Below, piece after piece: positions 6,005 through 62,463 of a stretch of 64,000 nucleotides of DNA. The first letter of the stretch is position 1, and each line of letters starts with the position of its first letter. The notes beneath the pieces are model-generated. The model had not been told where the DNA came from. It saw nothing but the letters and a program-made list of their open reading frames with translations, and did not search any database. The position numbers and the translations under genes were made by a program. The stretch is taken from IMG/VR virus record IMGVR_UViG_3300035034_002799, positions 21,207-85,206 of that record; one strand, written 5' to 3'. This stretch comes from a virus.

Positions 6005-6011
6005 GGTTTAT

Positions 6012-8963: not shown

Positions 8964-9004
8964 TAGACACGAACACATAAGATAAATTTTATATCATCTA
9001 GATG

Positions 9005-9012
9005 TATAAATA
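9005..9012 (+). promoter_or_regulatory. T4-type late promoter TATAAATA
   Basis: Exact TATAAATA box 23 bases ahead of the short gene at 9035, suggesting late expression of the truncated GT29-like protein and the frameshifted gene after it. Confidence 0.6.
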
Positions 9013-9034
9013 AAAGTTAATAGGTAGGTTAATT

Positions 9035-10641: not shown

Positions 10642-10664
10642 ACAAACGATCCTTATGTTATAAT
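10635..10664 (+). promoter_or_regulatory. Promoter for the gmd operon
   Basis: CTGACA at 10635-10640, an 18-base spacer, then TATAAT at 10659-10664 with an extended -10 TG at 10656-10657. It lies between divergent genes, 24 bases before the dehydratase start, which has a weak AAAGAG ribosome site. Confidence 0.6.
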
Positions 10665-10687
10665 TATATCAGAAAGAGTGTTAAAAT

Positions 10688-12751: not shown

Positions 12752-13329
12752 TGACTGAACACGAAAGATGGCTTAAAGATAACGGTGAAGAAAAGCGTTT
12801 AACATACCCATTAAACACCAAAAGTCTTTACGTGGATTTTGGTGCTTATGACGGTAAATTCGCTAGAAAGATTTATGATAAATTCAAATGTCAGATAATT
12901 GCTTATGAGCCTATTCCTAAATTTTTGGATTTATGTGAGAAAAACTTAGAAGGTACAGATGCTACTGTTTTGCCTTATGGTGTTGGTAAAGAAAATATCC
13001 AATTATATGTAGAAGATACTAATGATGCCACCCATCTTTTTTCTAAAGGTAATATTAAAATTGAAGTTAGAGATGTTTATAATCTTATAGGTAAAGATGA
13101 TATAGACCTTCTAAAAATTAATATCGAAGGTGCTGAATATGATGTCTTAGAGAGAATGATCGAAACTGATTTATTAAAAAACGTTCGTTATCTTCAAGTT
13201 CAGTTTCATAAATTTCCTCATGTTGAACGACCAGTGGAAAGAAGACAAAAGATTTGGGAAGAACTTCAAAAAACTCATAAATGTCAATGGTCTTATGATT
13301 TTGTTTGGGAGAGTTGGGAGAGAAAATGA
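12751..13329 (+). CDS. FkbM-family methyltransferase
   Basis: 192 residues. V-D-F-G-A-Y-D-G-K near residue 28 is the SAM-binding motif I, A-Y-E-P-I-P carries the acidic ribose-binding residue, and L-L-K-I-N-I-E-G-A-E-Y-D-V-L is the hallmark FkbM motif near 120-133. FkbM enzymes O-methylate sugars and glycans, so a cap or decoration on the polysaccharide made by this cluster is likely. ATG overlaps the gmd stop (TAATG), consistent with coupling. Confidence 0.88.
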   Translation: MTEHERWLKDNGEEKRLTYPLNTKSLYVDFGAYDGKFARKIYDKFKCQIIAYEPIPKFLDLCEKNLEGTDATVLPYGVGKENIQLYVEDTNDATHLFSKGNIKIEVRDVYNLIGKDDIDLLKINIEGAEYDVLERMIETDLLKNVRYLQVQFHKFPHVERPVERRQKIWEELQKTHKCQWSYDFVWESWERK

Positions 13330-14252
13330 ATAAAGGCGATGTTATTTATGTAACTGGTTCTACTGGTCTGGTAGGTAGTGCTATTATGAGAAAACTAAAA
13401 GAAGAAGGATTTACTCAAGTTTATGGAGCTTCAAGAGCTAATGGTTGTGATTTGGGAGATGTTAACTATGTAAAAGACATTCTATGGCATGTACGTCCAA
13501 AATACATATTCCATTGTGCGTCTATGGTTGGTGGAATTGGTAAAAACATTAAATACCCCGCCGACTTTGGTTTAACTAATTCCCGAATAAACAATAATGT
13601 TATTGAATGGGCTAGGGTTGTTAATGCTAAACTGTTATTTCTAGGTTCTTCTTGTATCTACCCCAGAGAATGCCCACAACCAATGAAAGAAGAATATCTT
13701 ATGACTGGTCCATGTGAACCAACCAATGAGATGTATGCTCTATCTAAGATTTATGGCATTAAAATGTGTCAGGCGTATCGTAAACAATACGGTAATAATT
13801 TTATTACTTGTCAGCCTGCTAATATATATGGGGTAGGGGATCACTTCGATCCTGAAAACGCTCATGTTGTGGGTTCTCTTATTAGTAAATTTCACAAAGC
13901 AAAGATCGAGAAGACACCTGTTGAACTTTGGGGTGATGGTTCAGCAATGAGAGAATTATTATATGTTGATGATGTTGCTGATGCTTGTTTGTTTCTTATG
14001 AACAATTATGACGGGGAAGAATTAATCAATGTTGGAACTGGTATTGATATTACTATAAAAGAATTAGCAAATATGATCAAGAAGGTTGTCGGGTATGATG
14101 GGCACATTCAATGGGATGTTCTAAAGCCTAATGGAATGCCCCGCAAAGTTCTAGATGTAGCAAAAATTCATTCAATGGGATGGGAACATAAATTTGACCT
14201 TGACAAAGGAATAGAAAAGACTTATAATTGGTATTTGGGGAATATAATATGA
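13326..14252 (+). CDS. GDP-L-fucose/GDP-colitose synthase-like epimerase-reductase
   Basis: 308 residues, the size of GDP-L-fucose synthase (Fcl). G-S-T-G-L-V-G-S at the N-terminus binds NADPH; the G-S-S-C-I-Y-P motif contains catalytic Ser and Cys; Y-A-L-S-K-I-Y-G provides Tyr and Lys; V-x-L-W-G-D-G-x-x-x-R-E-L-L-Y-V-D-D is the sugar-end signature. Fcl epimerises C3 and C5 and reduces C4 of GDP-4-keto-6-deoxymannose. The related ColC does the C5 epimerisation and C4 reduction for colitose. The ColD-like gene at 15079 makes the ColC role possible. Start ATG 13326 overlaps the FkbM stop in ATGA fashion. Confidence 0.9.
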   Translation: MNKGDVIYVTGSTGLVGSAIMRKLKEEGFTQVYGASRANGCDLGDVNYVKDILWHVRPKYIFHCASMVGGIGKNIKYPADFGLTNSRINNNVIEWARVVNAKLLFLGSSCIYPRECPQPMKEEYLMTGPCEPTNEMYALSKIYGIKMCQAYRKQYGNNFITCQPANIYGVGDHFDPENAHVVGSLISKFHKAKIEKTPVELWGDGSAMRELLYVDDVADACLFLMNNYDGEELINVGTGIDITIKELANMIKKVVGYDGHIQWDVLKPNGMPRKVLDVAKIHSMGWEHKFDLDKGIEKTYNWYLGNII

Positions 14253-15082
14253 TTAACGTTATTATGTATAGTTTTGACCGAGCTTGTCAGTTAGATTTAG
14301 CGTTAAGGTCAATAAAAGATCACTTTGCGGAATGGCAAAGTTGTACATGGACTATTATTGTAAAGTGTAGTAACGATGAATATTCAAAAGGATATTCAAG
14401 AGTTAGACAACTTCATCCTGAAAGGCAATTTGAATTTGTTCATGAGATTAATTTTAGAGATGATACCCGCCGAGCTTTTAATAAACCGAATAAACCCTAT
14501 ACTACATGGATGATGGACGATGATGCGTTTATTAGACCGTTCTCATTACAGGATCAACAATTTAAGGATTTCGCAAATAATCAAGAGATCACTACTTTAA
14601 GTTGTAGACTAGCACCATATATGAACGAATGTTACACACAATCAAGAAAAGCATTAGTTCCTGATCTTACCGAAAATTTAACATGGAACTGGCGTAATTC
14701 ATCCAAATTAGATTTGTTTCATGGATACCCTACTGATTGGGGGTATCCTATGTCAATTGCTAGTTTCCATATTTTTAGAACATATCAAATAGCAAGTACT
14801 GTTAATAAAGTAATATTTAAAGCACCTAATTCTCTTGAAGGTCAGTTAGCTCTTAATCCTCCTGCTGGTGACTATATGATGTGTTACCCAAGAGCTTTAA
14901 ATATCAACATTCCTATTAATAAAGCCCAAACTGAAAATGGTAATCGTTTTGGTAATAAATCTCATCTTCAACAAGATGTCCTCAACCGAGAATTTATAGT
15001 AGGAAAAAGATTATCTACTGATAAAGTATATGGAGCAGTCACACCTAGCCCTCATTATGAATTAGATTTGGAGTTTGAATGA
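14249..15082 (+). CDS. GT-A fold glycosyltransferase-like protein
   Basis: 277 residues. The N-terminus alternates short hydrophobic strands and helices as in GT-A folds (S-F-D-R near residue 7), and T-T-W-M-M-D-D-D-A-F near residue 85-93 supplies a DxD-type metal and nucleotide-sugar site. The rest is unlike families I know well. It lies inside the GDP-sugar operon and overlaps both neighbours by 4 bases. I chose ATG 14249 because it overlaps the preceding stop and follows a GGGG-containing site at 14237-14240. Confidence 0.72.
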   Translation: MINVIMYSFDRACQLDLALRSIKDHFAEWQSCTWTIIVKCSNDEYSKGYSRVRQLHPERQFEFVHEINFRDDTRRAFNKPNKPYTTWMMDDDAFIRPFSLQDQQFKDFANNQEITTLSCRLAPYMNECYTQSRKALVPDLTENLTWNWRNSSKLDLFHGYPTDWGYPMSIASFHIFRTYQIASTVNKVIFKAPNSLEGQLALNPPAGDYMMCYPRALNINIPINKAQTENGNRFGNKSHLQQDVLNREFIVGKRLSTDKVYGAVTPSPHYELDLEFE

Positions 15083-16242
15083 AATACCCACTTGCAACTG
15101 AAACATGGACAGACATCGAAAAAAAGGTAGCTAAAGATGTCATTGATAGTGGCATGTGTACTATGGGTAATATAACAAAAGAATTTGAGGCTAAATTTGC
15201 TGAATTTTTCGGAAGCAAATATGCAGTATTTAGTAACTCTGGTTCTTCAGCTAACCTATTGGCAGTAGCTGCATTAGTTCATAAATATAATTTACAACGA
15301 GGAGATGAAGTCATTGTCCCTGCGGTATCTTGGAGTACTACATATTATCCATTACAACAGTATGGTTTGAAATTAGTTTTTGTAGACGTAAACGAAAACG
15401 ATTTTAATATTGACATTGACGAAGTAACAAAAGCATTAACACACAAAACGAGATTAATTGTTGCAGTTAATCTTCTTGGTATGTCATGTAATTTTGGTGC
15501 GCTTGAGCATATTTGTAAATCTAAAAACATTATCCTTATGGAAGATAATTGTGAGTCAATGGGTGCTACATATGAAGATAAGTATTGTGGTGCGATTGGT
15601 GAAATAGGAACTTTTAGTACTTTTTTCTCACATCATATATGTACTGTCGAAGGTGGTGTTACAGTAACTAATGATGAGGAACTTTATCATTTAATGCTTT
15701 CAATTCGTTCTCATGGATGGACTCGACATCTACCAGACAATAATCATATTGAAAATAAAACGGGTGATTCTTTTTATGATTCTTACCGTTTTGTGTTGCC
15801 TGGGTATAATCTTAGAAATAATGACATTTTTGCTGCTATAGGTTTAGAACAACTTAAGAAATTACCTGAATTAGTTTCTAAAAGAATAGAAAATTGGGAT
15901 TATATGGTTTGTTCACTACAATATATCAACGTTAGTAATTTAAAACTTCAATGGACCAATGACGACCGCAGTAGTTCGTCTTGGTTTGGTTTCGGTTTCA
16001 TTTATGATGGGGATAGAGACTCTTTAGTTAAAACCCTCACTGAAGAAGGTATTGATACCCGTCCTATCGTAGCTGGTAACTTTTGCAAAAACCCTGTGAT
16101 TCAATATATGAATCACAGGATTGTAGGTGACTTACCTATTGCTAATTTAATTGATAAACAAGGTTTCTTTGTTGGTAATAACGGAAGTTCCTTGAGTTCT
16201 CAAATTGATCATTTTATTAATATTATTTCGAAAAATGCTTGA
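15079..16242 (+). CDS. DegT/ColD-like PLP sugar 3-dehydratase
   Basis: 387 residues, typical of the DegT/DnrJ/EryC1/StrS aminotransferase fold. Hallmarks are S-N-S-G-S-S-A-N for phosphate binding, E-D-N-C-E-S-M-G for the pyridine ring, and V-E-G-G after the Lys position. At that position the sequence reads F-S-H-H-I, so the PLP-binding Lys is replaced by His185. In ColD (GDP-4-keto-6-deoxymannose 3-dehydratase) and RfbH-type enzymes the same Lys is His, and they remove the C3 hydroxyl rather than transaminate. With Gmd and the ColC/Fcl-like protein this predicts GDP-colitose or another 3,6-dideoxy sugar. It ends convergently with the next gene, overlapping 20 bases. Confidence 0.83.
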   Translation: MKYPLATETWTDIEKKVAKDVIDSGMCTMGNITKEFEAKFAEFFGSKYAVFSNSGSSANLLAVAALVHKYNLQRGDEVIVPAVSWSTTYYPLQQYGLKLVFVDVNENDFNIDIDEVTKALTHKTRLIVAVNLLGMSCNFGALEHICKSKNIILMEDNCESMGATYEDKYCGAIGEIGTFSTFFSHHICTVEGGVTVTNDEELYHLMLSIRSHGWTRHLPDNNHIENKTGDSFYDSYRFVLPGYNLRNNDIFAAIGLEQLKKLPELVSKRIENWDYMVCSLQYINVSNLKLQWTNDDRSSSSWFGFGFIYDGDRDSLVKTLTEEGIDTRPIVAGNFCKNPVIQYMNHRIVGDLPIANLIDKQGFFVGNNGSSLSSQIDHFINIISKNA

Positions 16243-22857: not shown

Positions 22858-23012
22858 AGGAACTCGTCATTACAATAAGTGGTGGCGAGTTGCTTATTTA
22901 TATACCACATATAGTGTGATTTTACTTTTTATAGGAAAGAAAAAAGTATAATGAAATGTCACATGGCGGTAATAAATATCATGCACGAACCAATATTAGG
23001 AGGTATCAGAGA

Positions 23013-26000
23013 ATGTCAATAAAGGCACTAGCAGACTACACGCAATACAGTAAATACGCGAGATTTCAAAAAGAAAAAAAGAGAAGAGAAACGTGGAACG
23101 AACAAGTTGAGCGAGTGTTCAATATGCATGAAAAGAAGTTTGGTAGCAAGCTTGATGATATTAGAGAAGAATTTGAATGGGCAAAAGAACAAGTTAAAAA
23201 GAAAAGAATTTTAGGCTCACAGAGAGCACTTCAATTTGGTGGCGATCCTATTCTATCTAAGCCAGCCAAGATGTATAACTGTTTTAGAAAAAATACCACA
23301 TTCATTACAAGTGATGGTGTAAAGTCATTTGAAGATTATGAAAATGGAGATTCTGTTAACGTTTTGACTCATACAGGAAGTTGGAAACCTGCAATAGTTA
23401 AGAGTTATGGGGAACAGGTAGTATACCCAATTAGTTTCAATAAAGGAAAAAGTAAAGATTTTACTGTATGGGCTACTGGTGATCATACTTGGATTCTAAA
23501 GGACGGATCAAAAACTACTGATCTTACCGAAGGTAATCAACTTATTAGCCAGCCAAATATTTTCAATGACTGGTCCTACGAAGAAGCAACTCCAGAGGAG
23601 AGACTTTATTGGGCTTATGGTTTAGTATATGGTGATGGTACTTGTATCCAAGATAAAAATGGAATTAATAAATATTCTATGATTAGACTTTGCGGGTCTG
23701 ATAAAAAATACGCACCCCGTTTTGAGGAATTAGGATTTAAGACATCAACAAACCATTCTCTAAATGGTGATTTTTATGCTTATACAGGGTCATACCTTAA
23801 ACAATTACCTAACCCAGAAATAGATTCTATTGAGTTGATTAGAGCATTTGTTCGTGGGTTTTTAGACGCTGATGGTGAGAAAAATAGTAGTTTCAATGGA
23901 ACAGGTAGTATGTTTGTTTCAATTCAGCAATCTAAAAAGGAAGCTCAAGAGTTTATCAGAAATGTTTTCCCTATAGTTGGTGCATATGTGTTGTCTGAAA
24001 CAGAAATTAACAGAGAAACTAATTTAGGAAAACACGATGCGGTATTATTTAGAATATCAACCTCTTGTGAGGGATCATCGCCAATCTGGAAGGTAAATAA
24101 TATTGATAAATCTTGGAATAAAAAAGAGATTGTTTGGTGTCTTGAAGTTGAAGATGATCATAGTTTTGTAATGCCTAATGGAGTGGTTACTGGTAACTGT
24201 ACCGTCTCGTATGTTGACCGCCCAAGGTTTTTTCAAGAATGTATGTACTTATTACTTTGTGGATGTGGTACTGGATTCTCTGTCCAAAAACACCATATCG
24301 CAAAATTACCAAAAGTAGGTCCACGTAATAAAGGAACCAAAACTTTTATTATACCTGACACAATTGAAGGATGGGCAGACGCTATTGGTGTACTTATGAG
24401 TTCTTATTTTATTAATGATGATGATAAAGGTTATTTTGCATATGATTATGGAACTGAGCTTGATAATTTTTCTGGTTACGAAGTAGAGTTTGATTTTTCA
24501 CAAATCCGCACGCGAGGAGCTTCTATTAGTTGGGGAGGTAAAGCACCAGGACCTGATGGGCTTAAAACCTCTATCAATAAAATTTCAACACTTCTTGATT
24601 TAGCAGTTCATGAAGGTAAAAAATCCCTTCGTCCTATCGAAGCATATGATATTATCATGCATTCATCAGATGCTGTTCTTTCTGGTGGTATTCGCCGCTC
24701 CGCTACCATTTGTTTGTTCTCGCCAGATGACGAAGAAATGATTGACGCGAAAACAGGTGACTGGTTTATTAAGAACCCACAAAGAGGACGTTCAAACAAT
24801 TCAGTACTTCTTATCCGTAATGAAACCACTGCTGCACAATTTTCTAATCTTATGAAAAGTGTTAAAGAGTTCGGCGAACCAGGTTTTGTTTGGTCTGATG
24901 ATACAGAACTTTTAGTAAATCCTTGCGTCGAAATAGGCATGAGAGCATACACAGAGGATGGTGAAAGTGGTTGGCAATTTTGCAATTTATGTGAAATTAA
25001 CGGAAAGAAATCATCTGATGAAACCGCATTCCTTGATCAGTGCCGCGCTGCTGCTATTTTAGGAACCCTACAAGCTGCTTATGACGAGTTTGGTTACCTC
25101 ACAGATGCAACTAGTAAGATCGTCAAGAAAGAGGCTTTATTGGGTGTTTCTATGACTGGTATGATGGATAACCCACATATTACTTTTGATCCAGAAATTC
25201 AAAAGAAGGGTGCAAAAATTATTCTAGATATTAATGAAAGAATTGCTGCTAAAATAGGAATAAACAAATGCGCTCGTGCCACATGCGTTAAACCCGCTGG
25301 TACAACTTCATGTATTTTAGGGTCTGCTTCGGGTGTACACCCACATCATGCCAAAAGATACCTGCGTAGAGTCCAAGCAAACAAACTTGAGTTTCCCGCT
25401 CAGCATTTTGAAAAAATAAACCCGCATGCCGTAGAGGAATCAGTATGGAGCAATAACGGCACTGATGTTGTTATTACTTTCTTGTGTGAAGTACCTGATG
25501 GTGCGAAAACTAAAAATCAAGTAAATGCTATTAGTCTTCTTGAACATGTCAAATCAACTCAGCAAAATTGGGTTGAAGCTGGTACTCGTTATGACTCATG
25601 TGTAGCTCCTTGGTTACGTCATAACGTAAGTAACACTATTAATGTTAAACCAGATGAATGGAAGGATGTTGAAAACTTTATTTACAAAAACCGTAAATGG
25701 TTTGCTGGTATTTCCCTCCTCTCCCATTCTGGAGATAAAGATTATCCACAGGCACCGTTTACTACTGTTTACACTCCCCAAGAAATGGTTAAGGAATATG
25801 GAGACGGCGCAATGATGGCATCAGGTCTTATTGTTGATGGCTTACATGCTTTTGATAACAATCTTTGGAAAGCATGTGATTGTGTTCTAGGAGTTGGTGA
25901 GAAAATTAAACTATTAGAAGCCCCAGAAGAACCAGTGTTACCTGCTAAAAATGGTTATACCATTAAAGAATGGAAAGAAAAACTTACTAAATACGGCGAA

Positions 26001-26318
26001 GAAATGGAAAGCTATCATTTTAATCTTGTCTCATGGATGAAGAGCCTTGATAAAGTCGAATGGGTTCGCCGTGTTAAGCAGTTTGCTGATCGTTACGTAG
26101 ATCATGACGTGCGCCGTTGTACTTATTTATTGAAAGACGTTCACAACTGGAAACTTTGGTGTGATCTAAAACGTGAGTATAGTGATATTGATTGGGTAGA
26201 TGTTGTAGAAGAAAGTTATGAACTTGATGTTTCTACTATCTCAGGAGAAGCTTGTGCAGGCGGCAAGTGTGATATAGGTGACTTGGGTAAAGCAATCGAA
26301 CAGGCTAATAAAAAATAG
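23013..26318 (+). CDS. nrdJ: Class II (B12-dependent) ribonucleotide reductase with intein
   Basis: 1101 residues, 795 after removal of the intein. The extein resembles the monomeric adenosylcobalamin-dependent class: M-Y-N-C-T-V-S-Y-V-D-R-P, then Y-L-L-L-C-G-C-G-T-G-F-S-V; the radical-site region N-P-C-V-E-I holds the catalytic Cys and Glu; K-P-A-G-T-T-S is conserved; the C-terminus has C-A-G-G-K-C, the redox Cys pair. It makes deoxynucleotides without oxygen or a tyrosyl radical, but needs B12. I chose ATG 23013 because TAGGAGG lies 9 bases upstream; an in-frame ATG at 22956 would add 19 residues. Confidence 0.92.
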   Translation: MSIKALADYTQYSKYARFQKEKKRRETWNEQVERVFNMHEKKFGSKLDDIREEFEWAKEQVKKKRILGSQRALQFGGDPILSKPAKMYNCFRKNTTFITSDGVKSFEDYENGDSVNVLTHTGSWKPAIVKSYGEQVVYPISFNKGKSKDFTVWATGDHTWILKDGSKTTDLTEGNQLISQPNIFNDWSYEEATPEERLYWAYGLVYGDGTCIQDKNGINKYSMIRLCGSDKKYAPRFEELGFKTSTNHSLNGDFYAYTGSYLKQLPNPEIDSIELIRAFVRGFLDADGEKNSSFNGTGSMFVSIQQSKKEAQEFIRNVFPIVGAYVLSETEINRETNLGKHDAVLFRISTSCEGSSPIWKVNNIDKSWNKKEIVWCLEVEDDHSFVMPNGVVTGNCTVSYVDRPRFFQECMYLLLCGCGTGFSVQKHHIAKLPKVGPRNKGTKTFIIPDTIEGWADAIGVLMSSYFINDDDKGYFAYDYGTELDNFSGYEVEFDFSQIRTRGASISWGGKAPGPDGLKTSINKISTLLDLAVHEGKKSLRPIEAYDIIMHSSDAVLSGGIRRSATICLFSPDDEEMIDAKTGDWFIKNPQRGRSNNSVLLIRNETTAAQFSNLMKSVKEFGEPGFVWSDDTELLVNPCVEIGMRAYTEDGESGWQFCNLCEINGKKSSDETAFLDQCRAAAILGTLQAAYDEFGYLTDATSKIVKKEALLGVSMTGMMDNPHITFDPEIQKKGAKIILDINERIAAKIGINKCARATCVKPAGTTSCILGSASGVHPHHAKRYLRRVQANKLEFPAQHFEKINPHAVEESVWSNNGTDVVITFLCEVPDGAKTKNQVNAISLLEHVKSTQQNWVEAGTRYDSCVAPWLRHNVSNTINVKPDEWKDVENFIYKNRKWFAGISLLSHSGDKDYPQAPFTTVYTPQEMVKEYGDGAMMASGLIVDGLHAFDNNLWKACDCVLGVGEKIKLLEAPEEPVLPAKNGYTIKEWKEKLTKYGEEMESYHFNLVSWMKSLDKVEWVRRVKQFADRYVDHDVRRCTYLLKDVHNWKLWCDLKREYSDIDWVDVVEESYELDVSTISGEACAGGKCDIGDLGKAIEQANKK
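23280..24197 (+). mobile_element. Intein with LAGLIDADG endonuclease in RNR
   Basis: 306 residues inserted in the conserved M-Y-N/C-T-V segment. It starts with Cys, ends V-V-T-G-N, and is followed by Cys as +1 residue; the penultimate residue is Gly instead of His. Block B has A-T-G-D-H, block F has D-D-H-S-F. LAGLIDADG motifs are G-L-V-Y-G-D-G and R-G-F-L-D-A-D-G. Removing it restores a continuous RNR sequence. Confidence 0.92.
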
Positions 26319-53020: not shown

Positions 53021-53110
53021 ATTGATAGCTCCGTTTGTACTAGTGGAGGATAGGACGTGAAAAAGCCATACAAAGAACCTAACCTTTTACCGTATATAAA
53101 GGAGAAAATC

Positions 53111-54730
53111 ATGGCGATCACTGATGTAGAAAACGAAGAAGAACTTATGGAGGAATTCCAAGAAATTGACGAGTACATAGAAGAAGAAGATAATAGAGAA
53201 ACTGTAGCCGCAGTAAGTGGCTGGAGTATGTCTCTCGCTATCCATGCCATCCTTCTGCTACTATTGACATTTATAGTCATTGCTGATAGGATATTAGAAG
53301 AACCAATTCCAATAAAAACTGCATTTACAGAACAACCTCCAATAATAAAAGAGGAAGTAATTAAAGAAGTTGAGTTTAAAGAAGTAGAAATTACTATTGA
53401 TGATGTAGTAGTCGAACAACCAGTTGTAAATCAACTTGATGTGGTTGTTGAAGAAGTCAATTTAACTGAAGACGACACCGAAGTGACTGCTGAAGCTAAA
53501 GGTCGAGAAGAGGCAGTATCGTCTTCTGAAAATGGAGGTCAGGCGGCATTTATGAATATCGGTGCTGGTGGTGGCGGTGCTGGAATGATGGGGTCGAGAA
53601 CTGGTGGAGCTAAAAAGAGGGCACTAGTAGGAGGGGGTGGCTCAAGAGCAACTGAAACTACTGTTGATAGGGCTTTACAATGGTTTGCAAGGCACCAAAG
53701 TCCAAACGGACAATGGGATGTTGACGGTTATCAAATAAATTGTCAAGACGCTGGTCCAAAATGCGAACCTGGAACTGATCATACTGGCAGTGATGGTGAT
53801 GTTGCATCAACTGGATATGCAGTATTAGCTTTTTTAGGAGGTGGTTACGATCACAGAACTCCTAATAGATATCGCAGAGTTGTAAAAAATGGTTTGAGTT
53901 GGTTAGTTCAATCTCAAAATCAAGAAGGTGGTTGGGGTGACAAAAATCGTAATTATGAAAATGGTATAGCAACCATGGCATTAGCTGAAGCGTTTGCTAT
54001 GACAAATGACCCTGTATTAAGAGAACCAGCCCAAAGAGCAGTCGATTTTCTAAAGAGCCGTCAAATTGATGGGGATAATGGCTATGGTGGTCTTGGCTGG
54101 GATTATAAAACTAGCGATTCGAGAAACGATATGTCTGTTTCTGGTTGGGTTATAATGGCACTAAAATCCGCTAAAGCTGGTGATTTGGACGTTGGTAATT
54201 CCATGGAAGGTGCAAAATTGATGTTTGAGAAAGCATGGAATTCGACAAATAATAATGGTGAAGGAATTAATGATTATTATAAGGATCGCTCTGGTTATCC
54301 TTACACATGGAATTCGAAAACTGATAAGGCTGATCGACCAAACAGAACGGCTATAGGTCTTTGTATCGGAGTATTTTTAGGGCATGGTGCTGGTGACATT
54401 ATGATGGAAACTATGGCAAATGATGTTATGGCGAGAATGAGGGAAGGTGATGCTGATTATCAACTAAACACATACCCGACAAATACCTACTATTTGTATT
54501 ATTCAGCTTTGGCAATATTCCAAGTTGGAGGCGAACGCTGGGATGAATATAATAAAAAGATGATTGACGTTTTATTAAAGAGTCAACATACAAATGGTGG
54601 ATGCTTTGACGGTAGTTGGGATTACGAGGGCACCAGATTCCATGGTAATAAAACTGGAAGACTATTATCGACTGCTTATAACGCTTTAAGCCTACAAGTT
54701 TATTATCGTTATACCAGAGCAAATAAATAA
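53111..54730 (+). CDS. Membrane-anchored squalene-cyclase-repeat protein
   Basis: 539 residues from ATG 53111, which has an AAAGGAG ribosome site; a GTG frame start at 53057 has none. Order: acidic N-terminus, one transmembrane segment (~37-60), a Pro/Glu/Val linker, a Gly-rich stretch, then ~350 residues of alpha/alpha-toroid repeats. R-A-L-Q-W-F-A-R-H-Q-S-P-N-G-Q-W-D, Q-N-Q-E-G-G-W-G-D-K and G-Y-G-G-L-G-W-D-Y are QW-type motifs of the prenyltransferase/squalene-oxidase superfamily. The cyclase D-x-D-D-T-A motif is not seen. Closest in style are planctomycete-type proteins, suggesting capture from a host. Confidence 0.78.
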   Translation: MAITDVENEEELMEEFQEIDEYIEEEDNRETVAAVSGWSMSLAIHAILLLLLTFIVIADRILEEPIPIKTAFTEQPPIIKEEVIKEVEFKEVEITIDDVVVEQPVVNQLDVVVEEVNLTEDDTEVTAEAKGREEAVSSSENGGQAAFMNIGAGGGGAGMMGSRTGGAKKRALVGGGGSRATETTVDRALQWFARHQSPNGQWDVDGYQINCQDAGPKCEPGTDHTGSDGDVASTGYAVLAFLGGGYDHRTPNRYRRVVKNGLSWLVQSQNQEGGWGDKNRNYENGIATMALAEAFAMTNDPVLREPAQRAVDFLKSRQIDGDNGYGGLGWDYKTSDSRNDMSVSGWVIMALKSAKAGDLDVGNSMEGAKLMFEKAWNSTNNNGEGINDYYKDRSGYPYTWNSKTDKADRPNRTAIGLCIGVFLGHGAGDIMMETMANDVMARMREGDADYQLNTYPTNTYYLYYSALAIFQVGGERWDEYNKKMIDVLLKSQHTNGGCFDGSWDYEGTRFHGNKTGRLLSTAYNALSLQVYYRYTRANK

Positions 54731-54824: not shown

Positions 54825-55010
54825 ATGATGGATGAAAAGGTTATCGTGCAGGGCAGTGAACGTGAATTCGATGAACGAGTAGAAAAATGGCATCATAGTG
54901 ATATAATGGTACCATCACAGAGTTACTTATGTCTCACTGATAACGAATGGCATGCCTTTCTTAATGGTAATGTCATATTTTCTGATGATTTGGAGAGTAA
55001 AAAATTATGA
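54825..55010 (+). CDS. Small acidic protein of unknown function
   Basis: 61 residues with a TATAAT box (54805-54810) and an AAAAGGAG ribosome site upstream. No family recognised. It overlaps the next gene by 4 bases, so it is the leader gene of the second glycan island. Confidence 0.65.
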   Translation: MMDEKVIVQGSEREFDERVEKWHHSDIMVPSQSYLCLTDNEWHAFLNGNVIFSDDLESKKL

Positions 55011-56329
55011 CATTTGAATTTAAAAAATTAACTGGAGATGAACCTATTATCGAAAAGGTCAATCAAGAACCTACTAAAAAAGCTTCGATGATTGGTGGGG
55101 AAACTCCAATTAAAGAAATAGTTAAACAACCTATTAAGATAACGAAGAAAAAGAGAATACCTCCTATTAGTGGTACTAAGGACGGTACTGATCTTTCTCG
55201 ATTGAGACAAGGTAGAGAGCGACATGAGGGGTTTGATGTTGGACAGTATGTTCAGTCAGTTCCTATGTTGTTTAGTAGAGATGGACATAATCAATGGTTA
55301 GGTGATCAATTTAGAGGAGGGCATGCTTTTTTACTTTTGGGTGGTCCTTCTTTCGGTGATTTAATGAAAGAAACCTATGAATTTAAAGGTAAAAAAAGAT
55401 CAGTAAAGGAAATCCTAGATTACCCAGGTCATGTGACTATGTGTGTTAATAACGCAGTAAAATCATATAGACCTAATATGTGGGTTTGTGTTGACAGTCC
55501 TGATCATTTTATTAAAAGCACTTGGCTTGATCCCAAAATCCAAAAATTTGTTCCTTTTTGTCATACTGAAAAAACCATATTTGATAACGAGTCATGGAAA
55601 GAAACCAATACTAAAGTTGGTGATTGTCCTAATGTATTATTTTATCGTAGAAATGAACATTTTCAACATGAACAGTTTATGCATGAAGATACTTTTAATT
55701 GGGGTAGTCATAAGAAATATGGTGGCAGTCGCTCAGTCATGTTAGTAGCTTTTAGATTACTTTATCATTTAGGTATTAGAAATCTATATTTGTTAGGATG
55801 TGATTTCAACATGAGCGAAGATTCTAAATATCATTTTGATCAGGATCGTACTAGAGGATCACAGACGGGGAATAATTCTACATATAAAGCTTTGATAGAA
55901 CGGTTTTCATTAATGAAACCTGATCTCGACGCTCTTGGATATAATGTTTGGAACTGTAATCCAGATTCTCAACTTAAAGTTTTCCCTCACATGAAGTTTA
56001 TTGATGCAGCTAATAGAGCATGCGCAAATATGCCTAATATTGAAACTGAAAGAACGGCTGGTCTTTATGATAGACAAGCGAACATGAAGAAGGACAAAGA
56101 AGTTGACCTAAAGAAAAACGCGGCTAAAAATATAGCCGACCAATATTCAGAAACTGATAGAAAAGAAATCAAAGATAAATTAGATACTGCGCGTATTAAA
56201 CTCAGTAATTTAAAGAAACTTGCTGAACAAGAACCAACTGATGAAAACAATAAAGCGGTTAGGCGAGCACGAACTGAATTCAGGAAAATAGAAAAAGAAA
56301 AGAATAAAATTTGGGGGATCGTTAAATGA
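55007..56329 (+). CDS. DUF115-like glycan protein with coiled-coil tail
   Basis: 440 residues. After a ~75-residue Lys-rich leader, residues ~100-330 resemble DUF115-type proteins: L-L-L-G-G-P-S-F-G near residue 108, V-T-M-C-V-N-N-A-V, P-N-M-W-V-C-V-D-S-P-D, and L-Y-L-L-G-C-D-F-N-M near 262, followed by Y-H-F-D. The same motif order occurs in the frameshifted gene at 9231. Residues ~350-440 are a charged coiled coil. Probably a glycosyltransferase-related protein for surface glycan. The coiled coil could mediate assembly. Confidence 0.7.
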   Translation: MTFEFKKLTGDEPIIEKVNQEPTKKASMIGGETPIKEIVKQPIKITKKKRIPPISGTKDGTDLSRLRQGRERHEGFDVGQYVQSVPMLFSRDGHNQWLGDQFRGGHAFLLLGGPSFGDLMKETYEFKGKKRSVKEILDYPGHVTMCVNNAVKSYRPNMWVCVDSPDHFIKSTWLDPKIQKFVPFCHTEKTIFDNESWKETNTKVGDCPNVLFYRRNEHFQHEQFMHEDTFNWGSHKKYGGSRSVMLVAFRLLYHLGIRNLYLLGCDFNMSEDSKYHFDQDRTRGSQTGNNSTYKALIERFSLMKPDLDALGYNVWNCNPDSQLKVFPHMKFIDAANRACANMPNIETERTAGLYDRQANMKKDKEVDLKKNAAKNIADQYSETDRKEIKDKLDTARIKLSNLKKLAEQEPTDENNKAVRRARTEFRKIEKEKNKIWGIVK

Positions 56330-56991
56330 AATACGTTAAAAACATAGAATTAAAAGAAGTTTTTGATGATAATTCATTAGTTCTTTCTGATATTGAAACT
56401 ATGATGGAACATCAGGTTGGGTTTGCTTTTAATCGTAAGATAATCACTATAGCTGAACATGTTCAAATGGGTGGTCTTCGATGTGTTCAATATCCTAACG
56501 AATTTGCTCAGTATTTGAGCTTTATTTTTGATGTGAACGCGGAAACTCCAATTAATACATATATGGAAATAGGGGTAGATAGGGGCGGTACTTTTTTTGT
56601 TACTGACTCTTTTTTAAGATCAATCAATAGTTCTTTTCAAAAAAGTTACGCAGTGGATATTAAAAAGAAAACAATTCAATGGGATGAATATGCTGAAAAG
56701 TTTGATGTTGAGTTTATTTTAGGGGATTCTAAAAAGATTACACCTTTTGAGGTTGATTGGTGTTTAATTGATGGTGATCACACCTATGAGGGAGCAAAAG
56801 CAGATTTCGAGAAGATGAAAAATCATGCTAAATATATTGCTTTCCATGATATTGATATTATTCATAAACAGACGAATGTTAAAAAACTATGGGAAGAATT
56901 AAAACCGAATTACAAACATTGGGAATTTAGAAACAAAGATAGTAGATTTCCAACACCAATAGGGATTGGTGTTATTAAGGTAAAGGATTAA
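56326..56991 (+). CDS. SAM-dependent methyltransferase (CmcI/Methyltransf_24-like)
   Basis: 221 residues. Y-M-E-I-G-V-D-R-G-G-T near residue 75 is SAM motif I, A-V-D-I-K is the ribose acid strand, and W-C-L-I-D-G-D-H-T-Y-E-G-A near 144-156 is the hallmark of class I methyltransferases of the CmcI/macrocin group, which act on sugars. It ends in A-F-H-D-I-D. ATG overlaps the previous stop. Confidence 0.82.
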   Translation: MKYVKNIELKEVFDDNSLVLSDIETMMEHQVGFAFNRKIITIAEHVQMGGLRCVQYPNEFAQYLSFIFDVNAETPINTYMEIGVDRGGTFFVTDSFLRSINSSFQKSYAVDIKKKTIQWDEYAEKFDVEFILGDSKKITPFEVDWCLIDGDHTYEGAKADFEKMKNHAKYIAFHDIDIIHKQTNVKKLWEELKPNYKHWEFRNKDSRFPTPIGIGVIKVKD

Positions 56992-56992
56992 T

Positions 56993-57877
56993 ATGAGTCA
57001 AGGGTGTATTTTTTTTAATTTTGGTAATAAATGTATGGCTAGACTTTTTGTTGCGATCCATACACTTAGAAAAGTGTATAATGGTCCAGTAACAATAATG
57101 CTGTCCGAAAATGACGAATTTAATAAAGAAGTCTATTCTATATTTGAGAATAAGTATAATTGTAATATTCAATGGTTTGATCTTGATAGGACAGTTAAAA
57201 GAAACCTCAAAAGTGTGCTTAAGCCTATGTTTTTTGAAAACAGCCCTTATGATACGTCAATAATGTTTGATGGAGATTTGGTTTTTGCTAAACCTTTTGA
57301 TGAGTTGTGGGATTGGACTGAAGATAAAGGTTGGACTGTTACTCACTTTATGGGGTGGATGTCAAACGGTAAGAGCATGAGTAAGAGAATAAACAATGTT
57401 CTTAGTGATGTTTTTAATGAGAAACAAATGGCAGCCGCTACTGATAATCACCCCGCTATTAATGTGGGTGTGTTAGGTTATAACAAAGATAAAGGGCGCA
57501 AACTACTTCGTAAGTGGAAACAGGTTACTCAGCAAGTGGCTGGTAAGTTTATTGCTGATGAAATTGCAATGCAAGGTGTTTATTTTTGGTATGATCATTA
57601 TGTAGCCGACGAAAGATTTAATTATTCATGTCATTATGGTAAGATTTTGAAAGAAGCAAAAATTATTCATTATCATGGTAATAAACACACAGGTTTACAT
57701 CGTGAGTCTAGTCGTTTATGGTGGGCATGTGTGAAAGAGATAATGGATAAAGGTGATATTGATATAATCAAATGGCTCAAAGCTGATCCAGATGCTAACA
57801 GGGTATTAACTGAACATCCCGATGAAAAGTTTTTAAAAGAATGTCAGGATGAGTTTAAAGGGTATTGGGATGGTTGA
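56993..57877 (+). CDS. GT-A glycosyltransferase (GT8-like)
   Basis: 294 residues. I-M-F-D-G-D-L-V-F near residue 90-98 is the DxD motif, N-V-G-V-L-G-Y-N-K near 160 fits the acceptor-binding loop, and I-I-H-Y-H-G-N-K-H near 225 resembles the C-terminal His that completes the metal site in GT8-type enzymes. It follows the methyltransferase by one base. Confidence 0.8.
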   Translation: MSQGCIFFNFGNKCMARLFVAIHTLRKVYNGPVTIMLSENDEFNKEVYSIFENKYNCNIQWFDLDRTVKRNLKSVLKPMFFENSPYDTSIMFDGDLVFAKPFDELWDWTEDKGWTVTHFMGWMSNGKSMSKRINNVLSDVFNEKQMAAATDNHPAINVGVLGYNKDKGRKLLRKWKQVTQQVAGKFIADEIAMQGVYFWYDHYVADERFNYSCHYGKILKEAKIIHYHGNKHTGLHRESSRLWWACVKEIMDKGDIDIIKWLKADPDANRVLTEHPDEKFLKECQDEFKGYWDG

Positions 57878-58622
57878 TTTTACAACAATTATTGCTATTG
57901 ATGAACACCATACAAATGAACTTCAATTGGCATGGAGATCATGGGAGCATTTTAAACCAGAAATAGTTAAATCACCAATTATTATTATATATGATGATAT
58001 GCAAGTTGATCCAGAAGAAGGCTGGCTAGGCGAAATAAGCGAAAAATTTGATATTACGTTTATACCTTGGCATCCACCTGAAGGTTTATATAAGGACCAA
58101 CGAGAGAAAATGCTTACTAGTTTCTTTAAGGCAGTTGAGTATGTTCAAACTCCATGGTATTTGAAAATTGATACTGACTGTATCGCAACCAATCACGATA
58201 AGGGTTGGTTGAATCCTGATTTCTTCGTAGATGATCCAGTTTTCGTCTCCAATCCTTGGGGGTATACAAAACCTAATAATACTTTTGATATTATGGATGA
58301 TTGGGCTGATGAACTAGATGCGTTTAGAGGTTCTTCGAGATTGAATTTACCATATGATTCTTTATCTGATTTGGTAAGACATAATAGAATCATCTCGTGG
58401 GTTTATTTTGGTAATGTAGGATGGACTAATACTATGTCTTATATATGCCAAGATTCTGAAGGTAATTATAAGTTACCGTTTCCATCTCAAGACACTTACA
58501 TGTGGTATTGTGCTGAACGTATGAATAGACATTATAAAAGAATAAAATTCAAGAAGTTTGGATTTGAACATTGGCATAATATGAAGAGAATTAGAAATAG
58601 AGTTCAGGAGCTTTTGGGATAA
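57870..58622 (+). CDS. GT-A glycosyltransferase-like protein
   Basis: 250 residues from ATG 57870, overlapping the previous gene by 8 bases. P-W-Y-L-K-I-D-T-D-C-I-A near 96-107 carries the DxD motif; F-E-H-W-H-N-M near the end may hold a metal His. The overall strand-helix pattern is GT-A. No closer family seen. Confidence 0.75.
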   Translation: MVDFTTIIAIDEHHTNELQLAWRSWEHFKPEIVKSPIIIIYDDMQVDPEEGWLGEISEKFDITFIPWHPPEGLYKDQREKMLTSFFKAVEYVQTPWYLKIDTDCIATNHDKGWLNPDFFVDDPVFVSNPWGYTKPNNTFDIMDDWADELDAFRGSSRLNLPYDSLSDLVRHNRIISWVYFGNVGWTNTMSYICQDSEGNYKLPFPSQDTYMWYCAERMNRHYKRIKFKKFGFEHWHNMKRIRNRVQELLG

Positions 58623-58624
58623 TT

Positions 58625-58906
58625 ATGTACGATTTTGTTATTGCTGGTGCTGGTGTTAGTGCAGCTTCTTTTGCTGCCGCTTTAAAGCATAAGATAAGAT
58701 ATGTTTATTGTGAGTTAGATAATCCAGTCCCGTTTTATCCAGTAAATACTAAACGAAATAAAAAAATACTTGATGATCTAAAAGGATTGATAAAATTTCA
58801 ATATCCTAAACTTGAACTTTTGGGTAGATTAGGAACCTATAAGTACATTGATATTCACCAAGCAGTTGGGCAAGCACTTAGTCTTGCTAAGAAATATAAG
58901 GAGTGA
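58625..58906 (+). CDS. Mini UDP-galactopyranose mutase with large internal deletion
   Basis: 93 residues. The N-terminus F-V-I-A-G-A-G-V-S-A-A (FAD Rossmann motif) continues for ~35 residues, then the sequence jumps to Y-P-V-N-T-K-R-N and L-L-G-R-L-G-T-Y-K-Y-I-D-I, which are the C-terminal hallmarks of UDP-galactopyranose mutase (Glf, ~370-390 residues). About 280 residues, including the substrate domain, are missing, yet the frame is intact with a following AAGGAG for the next gene. It either is a decaying gene or a short protein with a kept role, such as FAD binding. Confidence 0.7.
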   Translation: MYDFVIAGAGVSAASFAAALKHKIRYVYCELDNPVPFYPVNTKRNKKILDDLKGLIKFQYPKLELLGRLGTYKYIDIHQAVGQALSLAKKYKE

Positions 58907-60099: not shown

Positions 60100-60128
60100 A
60101 AGGGAAGTCTATTGACTTCCCTTTTTTT
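60100..60128 (+). terminator. Rho-independent terminator
   Basis: Ten-bp stem (AAGGGAAGTC/GACTTCCCTT), 4-base loop and seven T's. Confidence 0.92.
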
Positions 60129-60139
60129 AATGGTAAAAT
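60112..60139 (+). promoter_or_regulatory. Sigma-70-like promoter overlapping the terminator
   Basis: TTGACT (60112-60117), 16-base spacer, TAAAAT (60134-60139) with a TG-G before it. The -35 lies in the terminator stem. An AAGGAG site follows. Confidence 0.65.
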
Positions 60140-60155
60140 CAAATAAGGAGAAACT

Positions 60156-60608
60156 ATGAAGAAGAGCATTTTGCGTGAGTGTTTTAGAAAGGCAACCAAA
60201 AAGAACCCTCACCACGAAGAAGGTGTTTTTGGTTGTTTCAGGCATTACTCTTTTTTTATACAGCGTAACAAGATTCTTGAAATGGGGATCAATAGAGCTA
60301 ATTATGTATTTGAAGACTGTTATCTGATATCTCTTGGTTACTCACCATTGAGTAAGATTCACTCTGAGCTTGACGCATACCATAAAACCAAAGGTCACCC
60401 AGATTTTGATATGAACTTACCGTGGGAGTGTATTAATATAAGGCTACTCAAGGATGGAACTCCTCGTTTGTCAGCCCCATGTAGGGTTTGTGCAAAAAAC
60501 CTCTTGCGTTGGGGATGTAATACGGTATACTATTCAACCAACGAAGGGTTCGACCGACTCAATATAGGAGAACACTATGCCTCTTTTGATGAACTTGTTT
60601 CTGTTTAA
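60156..60608 (+). CDS. Cytidine-deaminase-like zinc protein
   Basis: 150 residues. K-I-H-S-E-L-D-A near residue 66-73 gives the zinc His and catalytic Glu (H-x-E), and S-A-P-C-R-V-C-A-K-N-L-L near 107-118 gives the P-C-x-x-C pair, the two hallmarks of the cytidine/deoxycytidylate deaminase superfamily. V-Y-Y-S-T-N-E follows, as in many members. The substrate could be a nucleotide (dCMP/CMP) or a base in RNA or DNA. T4 has a dCMP deaminase, but this one is shorter and differs in its N-terminus. Confidence 0.83.
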   Translation: MKKSILRECFRKATKKNPHHEEGVFGCFRHYSFFIQRNKILEMGINRANYVFEDCYLISLGYSPLSKIHSELDAYHKTKGHPDFDMNLPWECINIRLLKDGTPRLSAPCRVCAKNLLRWGCNTVYYSTNEGFDRLNIGEHYASFDELVSV

Positions 60609-60819
60609 GTTATTATGGAGGGCATCAGAATCCCTTTTTTACTTTTTAATCGTATTTATGATTGGTTTTTTAGAAGCTAACGGTCTTATAATATTTAGTT
60701 TAACTTATATAATCTTAATCTATTTTTTTGACTGGGTGTATGATAATCCTGTATTGACGTTTGAGCAACTTTCTAAGGACATCCCTAGTGAAGACAAGGA
60801 GGAAGAAGAAAATGACTAA
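60577..60819 (+). CDS. Small membrane protein
   Basis: 80 residues, starting within the end of the deaminase gene at a good site (ATAGGAG then ATG). Two hydrophobic helices (~15-34 and ~37-54) are followed by a strongly acidic tail (S-E-D-K-E-E-E-E). The size and topology are compatible with a holin or a small inner-membrane regulator, but there is no specific motif. It overlaps the ClpS gene by 8 bases. Confidence 0.68.
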   Translation: MPLLMNLFLFKLLWRASESLFYFLIVFMIGFLEANGLIIFSLTYIILIYFFDWVYDNPVLTFEQLSKDIPSEDKEEEEND

Positions 60820-61147
60820 AATCGGCTTTGATTTGGGAAGTGATACCGTAGTTGAAGAAGAAACCACGGTTGATCATCGTATTTCTCCTCATTGGAATGT
60901 CATTCTATGGAATGACGCCCACCACACCTTTGAGTTTGTTATTGGTATGATTACCAAGATTTTCAAGAAGGAACTAGAGGAAGCTTTTGTTCATACTCGT
61001 GAGATTCACGAAAAAGGCAGATCAATTCTAACTACTTGTTCTAAAGAGCGTGGTTTACTATACCTAGAACAAATTTCCACGATGCATGAGCGTCATAGTG
61101 ATAAGGATTTAGGACCACTCAACTGTACAATTGAACCTACGGAATAA
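60812..61147 (+). CDS. clpS: ClpS-like N-end-rule adaptor
   Basis: 111 residues, the size of bacterial ClpS (~106). P-H-W-N-V-I-L-W-N-D-A-H-H-T-F-E-F-V near residue 28-45 corresponds to the ClpS core (P-x-Y-x-V-x-L-x-N-D-D-x-T-x-x-x-F-V) that forms the N-degron pocket; F-K-K-E-L-E-E-A ... H-E-K-G-R-S-I-L matches the later H-x-x-G motif. ClpS delivers proteins with bulky N-terminal residues to ClpAP. I chose ATG 60812 because AAGGAGGA lies 7 bases upstream. A Clp-type unfoldase gene follows after a 77-base gap. Confidence 0.87.
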   Translation: MTKIGFDLGSDTVVEEETTVDHRISPHWNVILWNDAHHTFEFVIGMITKIFKKELEEAFVHTREIHEKGRSILTTCSKERGLLYLEQISTMHERHSDKDLGPLNCTIEPTE

Positions 61148-61201
61148 TTTTTTTAAAACAAGTCTAAAACATTACCAGACATAGGTTTGTGTGAGTTGGT
61201 G

Positions 61202-61209
61202 TATAAATA
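61202..61209 (+). promoter_or_regulatory. T4-type late promoter TATAAATA
   Basis: Exact box 15 bases before the Clp-like gene, inside a short palindrome GTATA-AATAT-TATAC. Confidence 0.7.
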
Positions 61210-61224
61210 TTATACGGGGTCAAC

Positions 61225-62463
61225 ATGCCACCGAGAACACAACTTTTAACAGTCAAAGATAAAAAAAGAGCTACTTTAGACCCTACAAAAAGGTCAGCCT
61301 TTATTGAGGATTTAGAAAAAGAATTGTTCAAAGCGGTGATAGGGCAAGATGAAGCCCTGCATGCTATTGCTGATTCTACGAGTCGGCTTATCACTGGTAT
61401 ACGTGACAAAGACAAACCCATTCTTAATATGCTTTTTCTTGGTCCTACGGGGGTCGGTAAAACCGAAACTGTGAAGGCTATATCCAAGTGCTTGTTTGGT
61501 AACAGAAGCAGATTTACTAGAATCAACTGCCAAGAGCTTAGCGAATCCCACACTGTTTCAAAATTAATTGGTTCTCCACCAGGGTACGTTGGTGGAGAAA
61601 TAGAACCATTACTATGTGAAGAAAATATCATAAGAGAATGCGAAGCGGCTTGGATTGAGTCTCAAGGAATTTATAGTAAACCAAATCCTATATTTAAAAG
61701 ATATGACCCAGAGAAAGGAACTTTTCTTTCTATTATTCTTTTTGATGAGATTGAGAAAGCGCACCCTAAGATATGGACTGCGCTTTTAGGGTTAATGGAT
61801 GATGGGCATTTGGTACTTAGTAATAACGAAAAAGTTAATTTCACCGATTCTATTATTATTATGACTACAAATGTTGGTTCGAAAGAATTAGATATTAGCT
61901 TATCGAAAAATACCGTGGGGTTTGAGCTTAATGAAGAATCCGAAGTAGATTATAAAACCCTTGATAAGCAAGCCAAAGACACAGTATCTAAGCATTTTCC
62001 TCCAGAATTTATTAATAGATTTGACCATGTGATTGGGTTTAAACCATTAAATCACGAAAATCTTAGTGAAATACTTGAAATTCAGCTTAATAAATTTTAC
62101 AAAACGCTTTTAGATGCTGAAATTCCTATTAGATTTAAATATAGTGGAGAATTTAAAAAATATATTATTGATGTTGGAACTAATAATCAATATGGAGCGC
62201 GGTACCTTAAAAGGAAAATCGAAGAAAATCTTATAACTCCCGTTTCCAAAATGGTAAGTAGCGAACAAATAATTGCTGGTGATGAAGTATTTGTCACTAT
62301 GAAAGAAGGACAAATCAATTTTGTTAGAGAAAGAAGAACTGAAGACCAAATGCAAAAATGGGATCGTATTCAGAAAGCAAAAAACAGAAAACCGAGAGCC
62401 AAACCAAAAACTATTAAAAAACCTGTAAGACCTATTAAAAACACAGTCACCCGTAAAAAATGA
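61225..62463 (+). CDS. Single-ring ClpA/ClpC-type AAA+ unfoldase
   Basis: 412 residues, equal to only the second (D2) ring of ClpA/ClpC. Walker A is G-P-T-G-V-G-K-T (73-80), pore loop G-Y-V-G (120-123), Walker B I-L-F-D-E (171-175), sensor 1 T-T-N-V-G-S, Arg finger in F-I-N-R-F-D (265), sensor 2 G-A-R-Y-L-K-R. Residues V-G-F (231-233) fall where ClpC has the V-G-F loop that docks on ClpP, so it probably feeds host ClpP. The N-domain and D1 ring are absent; the C-terminal ~50 residues are basic (Lys/Arg/Pro-rich). It follows ClpS and has its own late promoter. Confidence 0.9.
   Translation: MPPRTQLLTVKDKKRATLDPTKRSAFIEDLEKELFKAVIGQDEALHAIADSTSRLITGIRDKDKPILNMLFLGPTGVGKTETVKAISKCLFGNRSRFTRINCQELSESHTVSKLIGSPPGYVGGEIEPLLCEENIIRECEAAWIESQGIYSKPNPIFKRYDPEKGTFLSIILFDEIEKAHPKIWTALLGLMDDGHLVLSNNEKVNFTDSIIIMTTNVGSKELDISLSKNTVGFELNEESEVDYKTLDKQAKDTVSKHFPPEFINRFDHVIGFKPLNHENLSEILEIQLNKFYKTLLDAEIPIRFKYSGEFKKYIIDVGTNNQYGARYLKRKIEENLITPVSKMVSSEQIIAGDEVFVTMKEGQINFVRERRTEDQMQKWDRIQKAKNRKPRAKPKTIKKPVRPIKNTVTRKK

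What the first reader, a model, noticed from the sequence alone, without database searches (positions are those of the whole stretch)
60812..62463. Phage-encoded ClpS next to a single-ring Clp unfoldase with a ClpP-docking loop
The sequence shows a 111-residue ClpS-like protein and, after a 77-base gap with a late promoter, a 412-residue AAA+ protein equal to the D2 ring of ClpA/ClpC. A V-G-F loop at residues 231-233 sits where ClpC binds ClpP. ClpS normally binds the N-domain of ClpA, which is missing here, so this ClpS must dock differently, redirect host ClpA, or act as a decoy. No clpP gene is visible. I infer a hijack of host ClpP for selective late proteolysis by the N-end rule, or for proteolytic maturation of virions.
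Basis: partly seen in the sequence, partly recalled or inferred. Interest (0 to 1): 0.87.

Follow-up and report, generated by a model that had tools for sequence, protein, structure and literature searches.

The report
Phage ClpS beside single-ring Clp unfoldase
An uncultured T4-like phage carries, side by side, a protein-degradation adaptor (ClpS) and a cut-down one-ring Clp unfolding motor that still has the docking loop for the bacterial protease ClpP; the motor belongs to a phage-only clade for which I found no earlier description, but the two proteins are probably not partners in the textbook way.

Summary
ORF 60812-61147 encodes a true ClpS (PF02617, 65.7 bits; ClpS fold). ORF 61225-62463 encodes one complete ClpA/B/C-type D2 ring with all motor residues and VGF at 231-233 in a flexible loop. 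TATAAATA late-promoter words are significantly enriched before genes here, and one lies 23 bp before the unfoldase.

New: the unfoldase belongs to a monophyletic clade (bootstrap 100) of single-ring, D2-only phage unfoldases. The ClpP loop (xG[F/Y]) is kept in 12/12 compared members, so it is selected, not chance. I found no clade member among isolate phages or plasmids, and no matching PHROG family.

The partnership is not supported. None of 11 other single-ring carriers has ClpS. Other ClpS phages have double-ring ClpA or ClpX instead. In E. coli, ClpS docks on the ClpA N-domain and delivery needs the D1 ring; this protein has neither. Missing clpP means little: the record is an 85-kb fragment, and all six ClpS-bearing jumbo phages examined carry ClpP and double-ring ClpA. 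Phage ClpS is already published.

Best reading: two separate ways into host Clp proteolysis, a ClpS for host ClpA/ClpC and a late minimal unfoldase for ClpP. A stripped ClpS-D2-ClpP machine is not excluded. Nothing here was shown biochemically.

The parts
60812..61147 (+). clpS, 111 aa, N-degron adaptor fold with a ~25-residue flexible N-terminal extension
   Evidence: PF02617 65.7 bits; structure match to ClpS
61225..62463 (+). single-ring Clp/Hsp100 D2-type AAA+ unfoldase, 412 aa
   Evidence: PF07724 and PF10431; clade of 12 single-ring phage proteins, bootstrap 100; model pTM 0.75
61441..61464 (+). Walker A, GPTGVGKT, residues 73-80
   Evidence: G73, G76, G78, K79, T80 invariant in 12 relatives
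61582..61593 (+). pore-1 loop GYVG, residues 120-123
   Evidence: Y121 and G123 invariant in A5
61735..61749 (+). Walker B, ILFDE, residues 171-175
   Evidence: D174, E175 invariant
61915..61923 (+). VGF, residues 231-233, ClpP-docking type tripeptide
   Evidence: xG[F/Y] in 12 of 12 single-ring relatives; IGL in E. coli ClpA, LDY in E. coli ClpB
62002..62019 (+). PEFINR with arginine finger R265, residues 260-265
   Evidence: P260, E261, F262, R265 invariant
62194..62202 (+). sensor-2 GAR, residues 324-326
   Evidence: invariant in 12 relatives
61202..61209 (+). TATAAATA, T4-type late promoter word, 23 bases before the unfoldase ATG
   Evidence: enrichment test
60100..60130 (+). intrinsic terminator: 10-pair stem plus T run, upstream of the clpS gene cluster
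60156..60608 (+). 150-aa ORF of unknown function, overlaps the next gene
   Evidence: no family
60577..60819 (+). 80-aa ORF, hydrophobic N-terminal half, overlaps clpS by 8 bases
   Evidence: gaps

Best explanation
Two independent phage tools that act on the host Clp proteolysis system. (1) The 412-aa protein is an active hexameric single-ring unfoldase of a phage-specific clade. It is made late, threads proteins through its Y121 pore loops and docks by its VGF loops on a ClpP ring, the host's or one encoded outside this fragment. (2) ClpS is a working N-degron adaptor that acts on the host's full-length ClpA or ClpC, which has the N-domain and D1 ring that ClpS needs; it steers that protease to proteins with bulky hydrophobic N-termini and away from others. 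They sit together as parts of one protein-turnover region, not as adaptor and motor of one machine. Shown: sequence, domains, conserved catalytic and loop residues, clade, late promoter word. Inferred: hexamer, ClpP docking, ClpS partner, substrates.
For: Motor residues invariant in 12 relatives; xG[F/Y] loop 12/12, absent in E. coli ClpB, in a disordered loop like the flexible ClpP-binding loops described for ClpA and ClpX (PMC7707817). Late promoter. ClpS pocket largely kept and ClpS fold. The two genes occur apart: ClpS in 0 of 11 other single-ring carriers, and ClpS phages with ClpX or double-ring ClpA. In E. [quoted passage not shown]
Against: Two rare Clp genes being neighbours by chance is unlikely, and the order clpS-unfoldase copies the E. 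coli clpS-clpA order. M. tuberculosis ClpS acts on ClpC1 lacking its N-domain (PMC6274998), though through a middle domain that this protein also appears to lack (not tested). The host is unknown, so a host ClpA or ClpC is assumed. Most single-ring relatives are fragments and could carry ClpS elsewhere.
Confidence: 0.45

Rival explanations
1. Stripped N-degron protease: the phage ClpS feeds its neighbour directly. The flexible ClpS N-terminal extension is gripped by the D2 pore and the single ring passes substrates to ClpP, with no N-domain or D1 ring.
For: Gene adjacency in clpS-clpA order; a long flexible N-terminal extension is kept; in ClpAPS structures the extension reaches the D2 pore in some classes (PMC9663308); ClpS can act without the ClpC1 N-domain (PMC6274998).
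Against: ClpS absent from 11 other carriers; D1 pore-2 loops essential for delivery in E. coli; no known docking site left on the protein; no late promoter word between the terminator at 60100 and clpS, so timing may differ.
Confidence: 0.15
2. The single-ring protein is a late assembly chaperone or disaggregase that works without ClpP; the loop is a relic.
For: In L048, L102 and L136 the gene lies next to very large or tail-like late genes, judged from ORFs only; human CLPB is a ClpB-type ATPase with an ankyrin N-domain that works as a disaggregase (PMC9934407, listed); the tree does not group the phage protein with E. coli ClpA.
Against: A relic loop would not be kept as xG[F/Y] in 12 of 12 divergent members, the others being 33-38% identical to the window protein.
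Confidence: 0.2
3. ClpS is a decoy or brake: it occupies host ClpA/ClpC so that SsrA-tagged or unfolded phage proteins are spared.
For: ClpS inhibits SsrA-substrate unfolding by M. tuberculosis ClpC1 (PMC6274998); D36A, T38H, M40F and M62T changes relative to E. coli could weaken N-degron binding.
Against: N34, D35, V43 and H66 are kept; relatives with the same HHTF motif occur in planctomycete and verrucomicrobial genomes, where a decoy role is not expected.
Confidence: 0.15
4. The complete phage carries a full Clp set and the 85-kb record lacks the rest: ClpS serves a phage double-ring ClpA, and a phage ClpP serves both unfoldases.
For: All six ClpS-bearing jumbo phages examined carry a double-ring ClpA-like protein and a ClpP family protein. 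Nearest polymerase matches are mostly phages of about 180-200 kb, so half of this genome may be missing.
Against: Nothing of the kind in the 85 kb held; some PF00574 proteins in phages may be prohead proteases.
Confidence: 0.15

Closest known systems
Cellular ClpS / ClpA / ClpP N-degron protease (E. coli clpS-clpA operon)
   Same: ClpS family, gene order clpS then unfoldase, D2 motor with a ClpP loop
   Different: no ClpA N-domain, no D1 ring, no ClpP seen; unfoldase not in the ClpA clade
Jumbo-phage ClpS (PMC7824862; GAP32, PA5oct, Atu_ph07, Phosso, Kaldavass, Vibrio 2.275.O)
   Same: phage-encoded ClpS
   Different: those phages carry a double-ring ClpA and a ClpP, not next to clpS; here ClpS adjoins a single-ring D2
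Single-ring D2-only Clp unfoldases of uncultured phages (clade found here: L048, L055, L056, L072, L102, L136, L138, L139, L141, L147, L173)
   Same: one D2 ring, LD motif near the N-terminus, xG[F/Y] loop; one clade, bootstrap 100
   Different: about 30-residue insert before Walker B and basic tail in the window protein; none of the others has ClpS
ClpX
   Same: single-ring Clp unfoldase with ClpP loop
   Different: no zinc finger, D2 of the ClpA/B/C type; ClpX models score far lower than ClpA/ClpB models
Human CLPB (Skd3)
   Same: single ClpB-type D2 motor (from established knowledge)
   Different: ankyrin repeats, disaggregase not known to use ClpP; no ankyrin here and ClpP loop present

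Membership tests
ClpS (PF02617) | profile match over the curated cut-off | tested here: met
   65.7 bits against 23
ClpS (PF02617) | ClpS fold | tested here: met
   best PDB matches are ClpS chains; M. smegmatis ClpS rmsd 1.1
ClpS (PF02617) | N-degron pocket: N34, D35, T38, M40, V43, V65, H66 | tested here: inconclusive
   N34, D35, V43, H66 kept, V65 is I; T38 is H, M40 is F, and D36 is A
ClpS (PF02617) | binds the ClpA N-domain and delivers N-degron proteins | not testable with these tools
   needs biochemistry; no partner N-domain in the record
ClpA/ClpC double-ring unfoldase | N-domain and D1 ring | tested here: not met
   none in the protein or the record
ClpA/ClpC double-ring unfoldase | D2 motor with ClpP loop | tested here: met
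Single-ring phage D2 clade | single complete D2 ring, under 460 aa, own clade | tested here: met
Single-ring phage D2 clade | xG[F/Y] in the ClpP-loop position | tested here: met
   12 of 12
ClpP-dependent unfoldase | binds and feeds ClpP | not testable with these tools
   no complex prediction offered; experiment needed
ClpX | C4 zinc-finger domain and ClpX-type AAA | tested here: not met
   no PF06689; ClpX models score 42.5 bits against a cut-off of 359

The most novel reading that the evidence does not exclude
A minimal phage N-degron protease: a ClpS adaptor that hands substrates straight to a D2-only ring docked on host ClpP, dispensing with the N-domain and D1 ring that are held to be required, thereby rewriting which host or phage proteins are destroyed late in infection.
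Probability: 0.13. Interest if true: 0.8.

Novelty: new variant of a known kind. Interest (0 to 1): 0.5.

Why it matters
A natural D2-only Clp ring with a conserved ClpP loop would be a ready-made minimal unfoldase and a test of what the N-domain and D1 ring contribute to adaptor delivery. It also suggests that phages reach into host Clp proteolysis with several different toolkits: ClpS with ClpA, ClpS with ClpX and Hsp20, or a single-ring D2.

Tried and rejected
Single-protein scans of viral contigs found no relatives; alignment-based scans did. The first alignment A1 was too divergent to scan with. A2 used two composed ClpS-like probe sequences written from memory, not database sequences; only the loci they found, confirmed against the window ClpS, are used as evidence. 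'Bacteriophage sp.' hits MT838771 (clpS beside a double-ring clpA) and MT835505 look like bacterial contigs and were set aside. A ClpA origin of the unfoldase with loss of N-domain and D1 was considered: E. coli ClpA and the ClpA-like proteins of Phosso, XaC1, SCTP-2, VnaP and R16F fall in another part of the tree. The idea that the VGF is chance was rejected. Plasmid tblastn with ClpS gave nothing; plasmid and isolate-phage tblastn with the single-ring L139 gave only weak matches, all below 60% identity and at most 39.5% among those listed. Two tree runs failed on script errors before the third worked.

Full report
What was checked. The window is bases 21207-85206 of an 85,206-base linear virus record. 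Its gene content is T4-like: baseplate hub/tail lysozyme and baseplate wedge genes, ribonucleotide reductase and NAD ligase, and a family B DNA polymerase closest, at 31-32%, to cyanophage and marine-virus polymerases, with a recombinase-like ORF in the upstream 21 kb. No tRNA and no Rfam family was found. Since the nearest polymerase matches are mostly in genomes of about 180-200 kb, the record is probably about half a genome, so absence of a gene means little.

The ClpS gene. ORF 60812-61147 starts with ATG after AAGGAGGA and overlaps the preceding 80-aa ORF by 8 bases. Pfam ClpS 65.7 bits, cut-off 23. An AlphaFold model from 14 sequences has a core pLDDT of 92-98 and a flexible N-terminal ~25 residues; Foldseek gives ClpS chains first, including E. 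coli and Caulobacter ClpS with N-end peptides and M. smegmatis ClpS at rmsd 1.1. A review gives the E. coli pocket as N34, D35, T38, M40, V43, V65 and H66 (PMC8346999). In the window protein N34, D35, V43 and H66 are the same, V65 is I, T38 is H, M40 is F, and the neighbouring D36 is A. The same HHTF motif occurs in the nearest viral relative L018 (46%) and in planctomycete and verrucomicrobial ClpS. M. smegmatis ClpS, solved with Phe and Trp dipeptides, belongs to the actinobacteria, whose ClpS in our alignment reads NDPVN, i.e. without D36 (Demequina); D36 is therefore unlikely to be essential. That step is inference.

The unfoldase. ORF 61225-62463 encodes one AAA+ domain plus the D2-small domain. 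Frames upstream of the ATG contain stops, and double-ring ClpA proteins find no D1 or N-domain anywhere in the record, only this D2. Walker A, pore tyrosine, Walker B, sensor-1 asparagine, arginine finger and sensor-2 arginine are invariant across 12 relatives. The AlphaFold model (pTM 0.75) matches ClpC and ClpB NBD2 structures best. Residues 231-233 are VGF in a loop (229-240) with pLDDT below 50. ClpA and ClpX bind ClpP by flexible loops carrying IGL or IGF (PMC7707817).

A clade of single-ring phage unfoldases. Scans of viral contigs with D2 alignments gave 11 other single-ring proteins, 337-438 aa, each starting within about 25 residues of the D2 domain, against 68 double-ring ORFs in the second set. 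In a tree of 50 D2 domains all 12 single-ring proteins form one clade, bootstrap 100, with the window protein as an early branch, apart from E. coli ClpA, E. coli ClpB and the double-ring phage proteins. The loop triplet in the 12 is VGF, MGF, MGF, LGF, LGY, MGF, YGF, IGY, VGF, YGF, IGF, IGF; E. coli ClpA has IGL and E. coli ClpB LDY. With the relatives at only 33-38% identity to the window protein, such retention indicates selection. More members and a second, more distant single-ring subtype (L237-L248 and others, TGF or AGF in the loop) appeared in a further scan. PHROGs assigns the three members scanned only to the double-ring family phrog_4871 as best match. Queries with one member found only weak matches in isolate phages and plasmids, none identified as a member of this clade. 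I found no paper on this clade in the library searched, which is not a full search of the literature.

Does ClpS work with its neighbour? Against: none of the 11 other single-ring records, 27 to 455 kb, has ClpS. The six named ClpS phages carry a double-ring ClpA-like protein (6 of 6) and a ClpP family protein (6 of 6). In five viral contigs (L303, L304, L305, L307, L308) ClpS lies 0.5-1.4 kb downstream of a ClpX-like gene; in the three examined in detail (L303, L307, L308) IF-3 lies between them, with Hsp20 in L303 and L307 and ribosomal protein S21 in L303. In E. [quoted passage not shown] The phage unfoldase has neither. For: adjacency in the clpS-clpA order of E. coli, and a report that M. 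tuberculosis ClpS acts on ClpC1 without its N-domain (PMC6274998), although there the middle domain is needed. So the partnership is possible but not favoured.

Timing. TATAAATA occurs 15 times on the + strand of the record; 9 lie 15-35 bases before a gene start, while permutations of the same letters average 0.57 and otherwise reach at most 3. One lies 23 bases before the unfoldase. A strong intrinsic terminator has its stem at 60100-60123, and no TATAAATA lies between it and clpS, so clpS may be read from another promoter. A sigma-70-like match at 60112-60139 exists, but such matches are at chance frequency in the region.

Known or new. Phage-encoded ClpS was described in 2021 as a likely feeder of host ClpAP (PMC7824862). 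That the six ClpS phages examined carry their own ClpA and ClpP seems not to be noted there (from the passages found). The single-ring clade and its pairing with ClpS here are, as far as the tools show, a new variant. Nothing here shows activity, ClpP binding or substrates.

Noticed in passing
L303:3344-6240, L307:3649-6300, L308:4172-6240 (ClpX-like and ClpS also in L304, L305): Recurring phage gene cassette: clpX, IF-3 (infC-type), sometimes S21 and hsp20, then clpS; members confirmed by Pfam in L303, L307 and L308, with related sets in PA5oct (L009), GAP32, Kaldavass and Vibrio 2.275.O. Suggests a conserved translation and protein-turnover island in phages.
   Followed up: partly
records W01-W06 (Phosso, Atu_ph07, PA5oct, GAP32, Vibrio 2.275.O, Kaldavass): All six ClpS-bearing jumbo phages also encode a double-ring ClpA-like protein and at least one ClpP family protein.
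   Followed up: partly
L237-L248: Second, more distant subtype of single-ring D2 phage unfoldases with TGF, AGF or PGF in the loop position.
   Followed up: no
window 10688-12751: GDP-mannose 4,6-dehydratase interrupted by about 330 residues that start with C and end VLAN before S: looks like an intein.
   Followed up: partly
window 22956-26318: Ribonucleotide reductase with an apparent intein near the N-terminus (NCFRKNTTFITSDG...VVTGNC).
   Followed up: no
window 2818-16242 and 55007-58906: Large sugar-modification block: cytidylyltransferase-cupin, short-chain dehydrogenase-like ORF, 3-dehydroquinate synthase-like, SIS sugar isomerase, epimerases, DegT aminotransferase, glycosyltransferase-like ORFs, and a short UDP-galactopyranose mutase-like fragment at 58625.
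   Followed up: partly
window 53057-54730: 557-aa protein with weak similarity to squalene-hopene cyclase and pectate lyase profiles, downstream of the tail genes; role unknown.
   Followed up: no
L136 record (G018) 856-1329: A carrier of the single-ring unfoldase whose 32.7-kb contig also encodes a ClpP family protein (55.6 bits).
   Followed up: no
MT838771.1 (L004), MT835505.1 (L013): Records filed as bacteriophage that look like bacterial chromosome contigs.
   Followed up: partly
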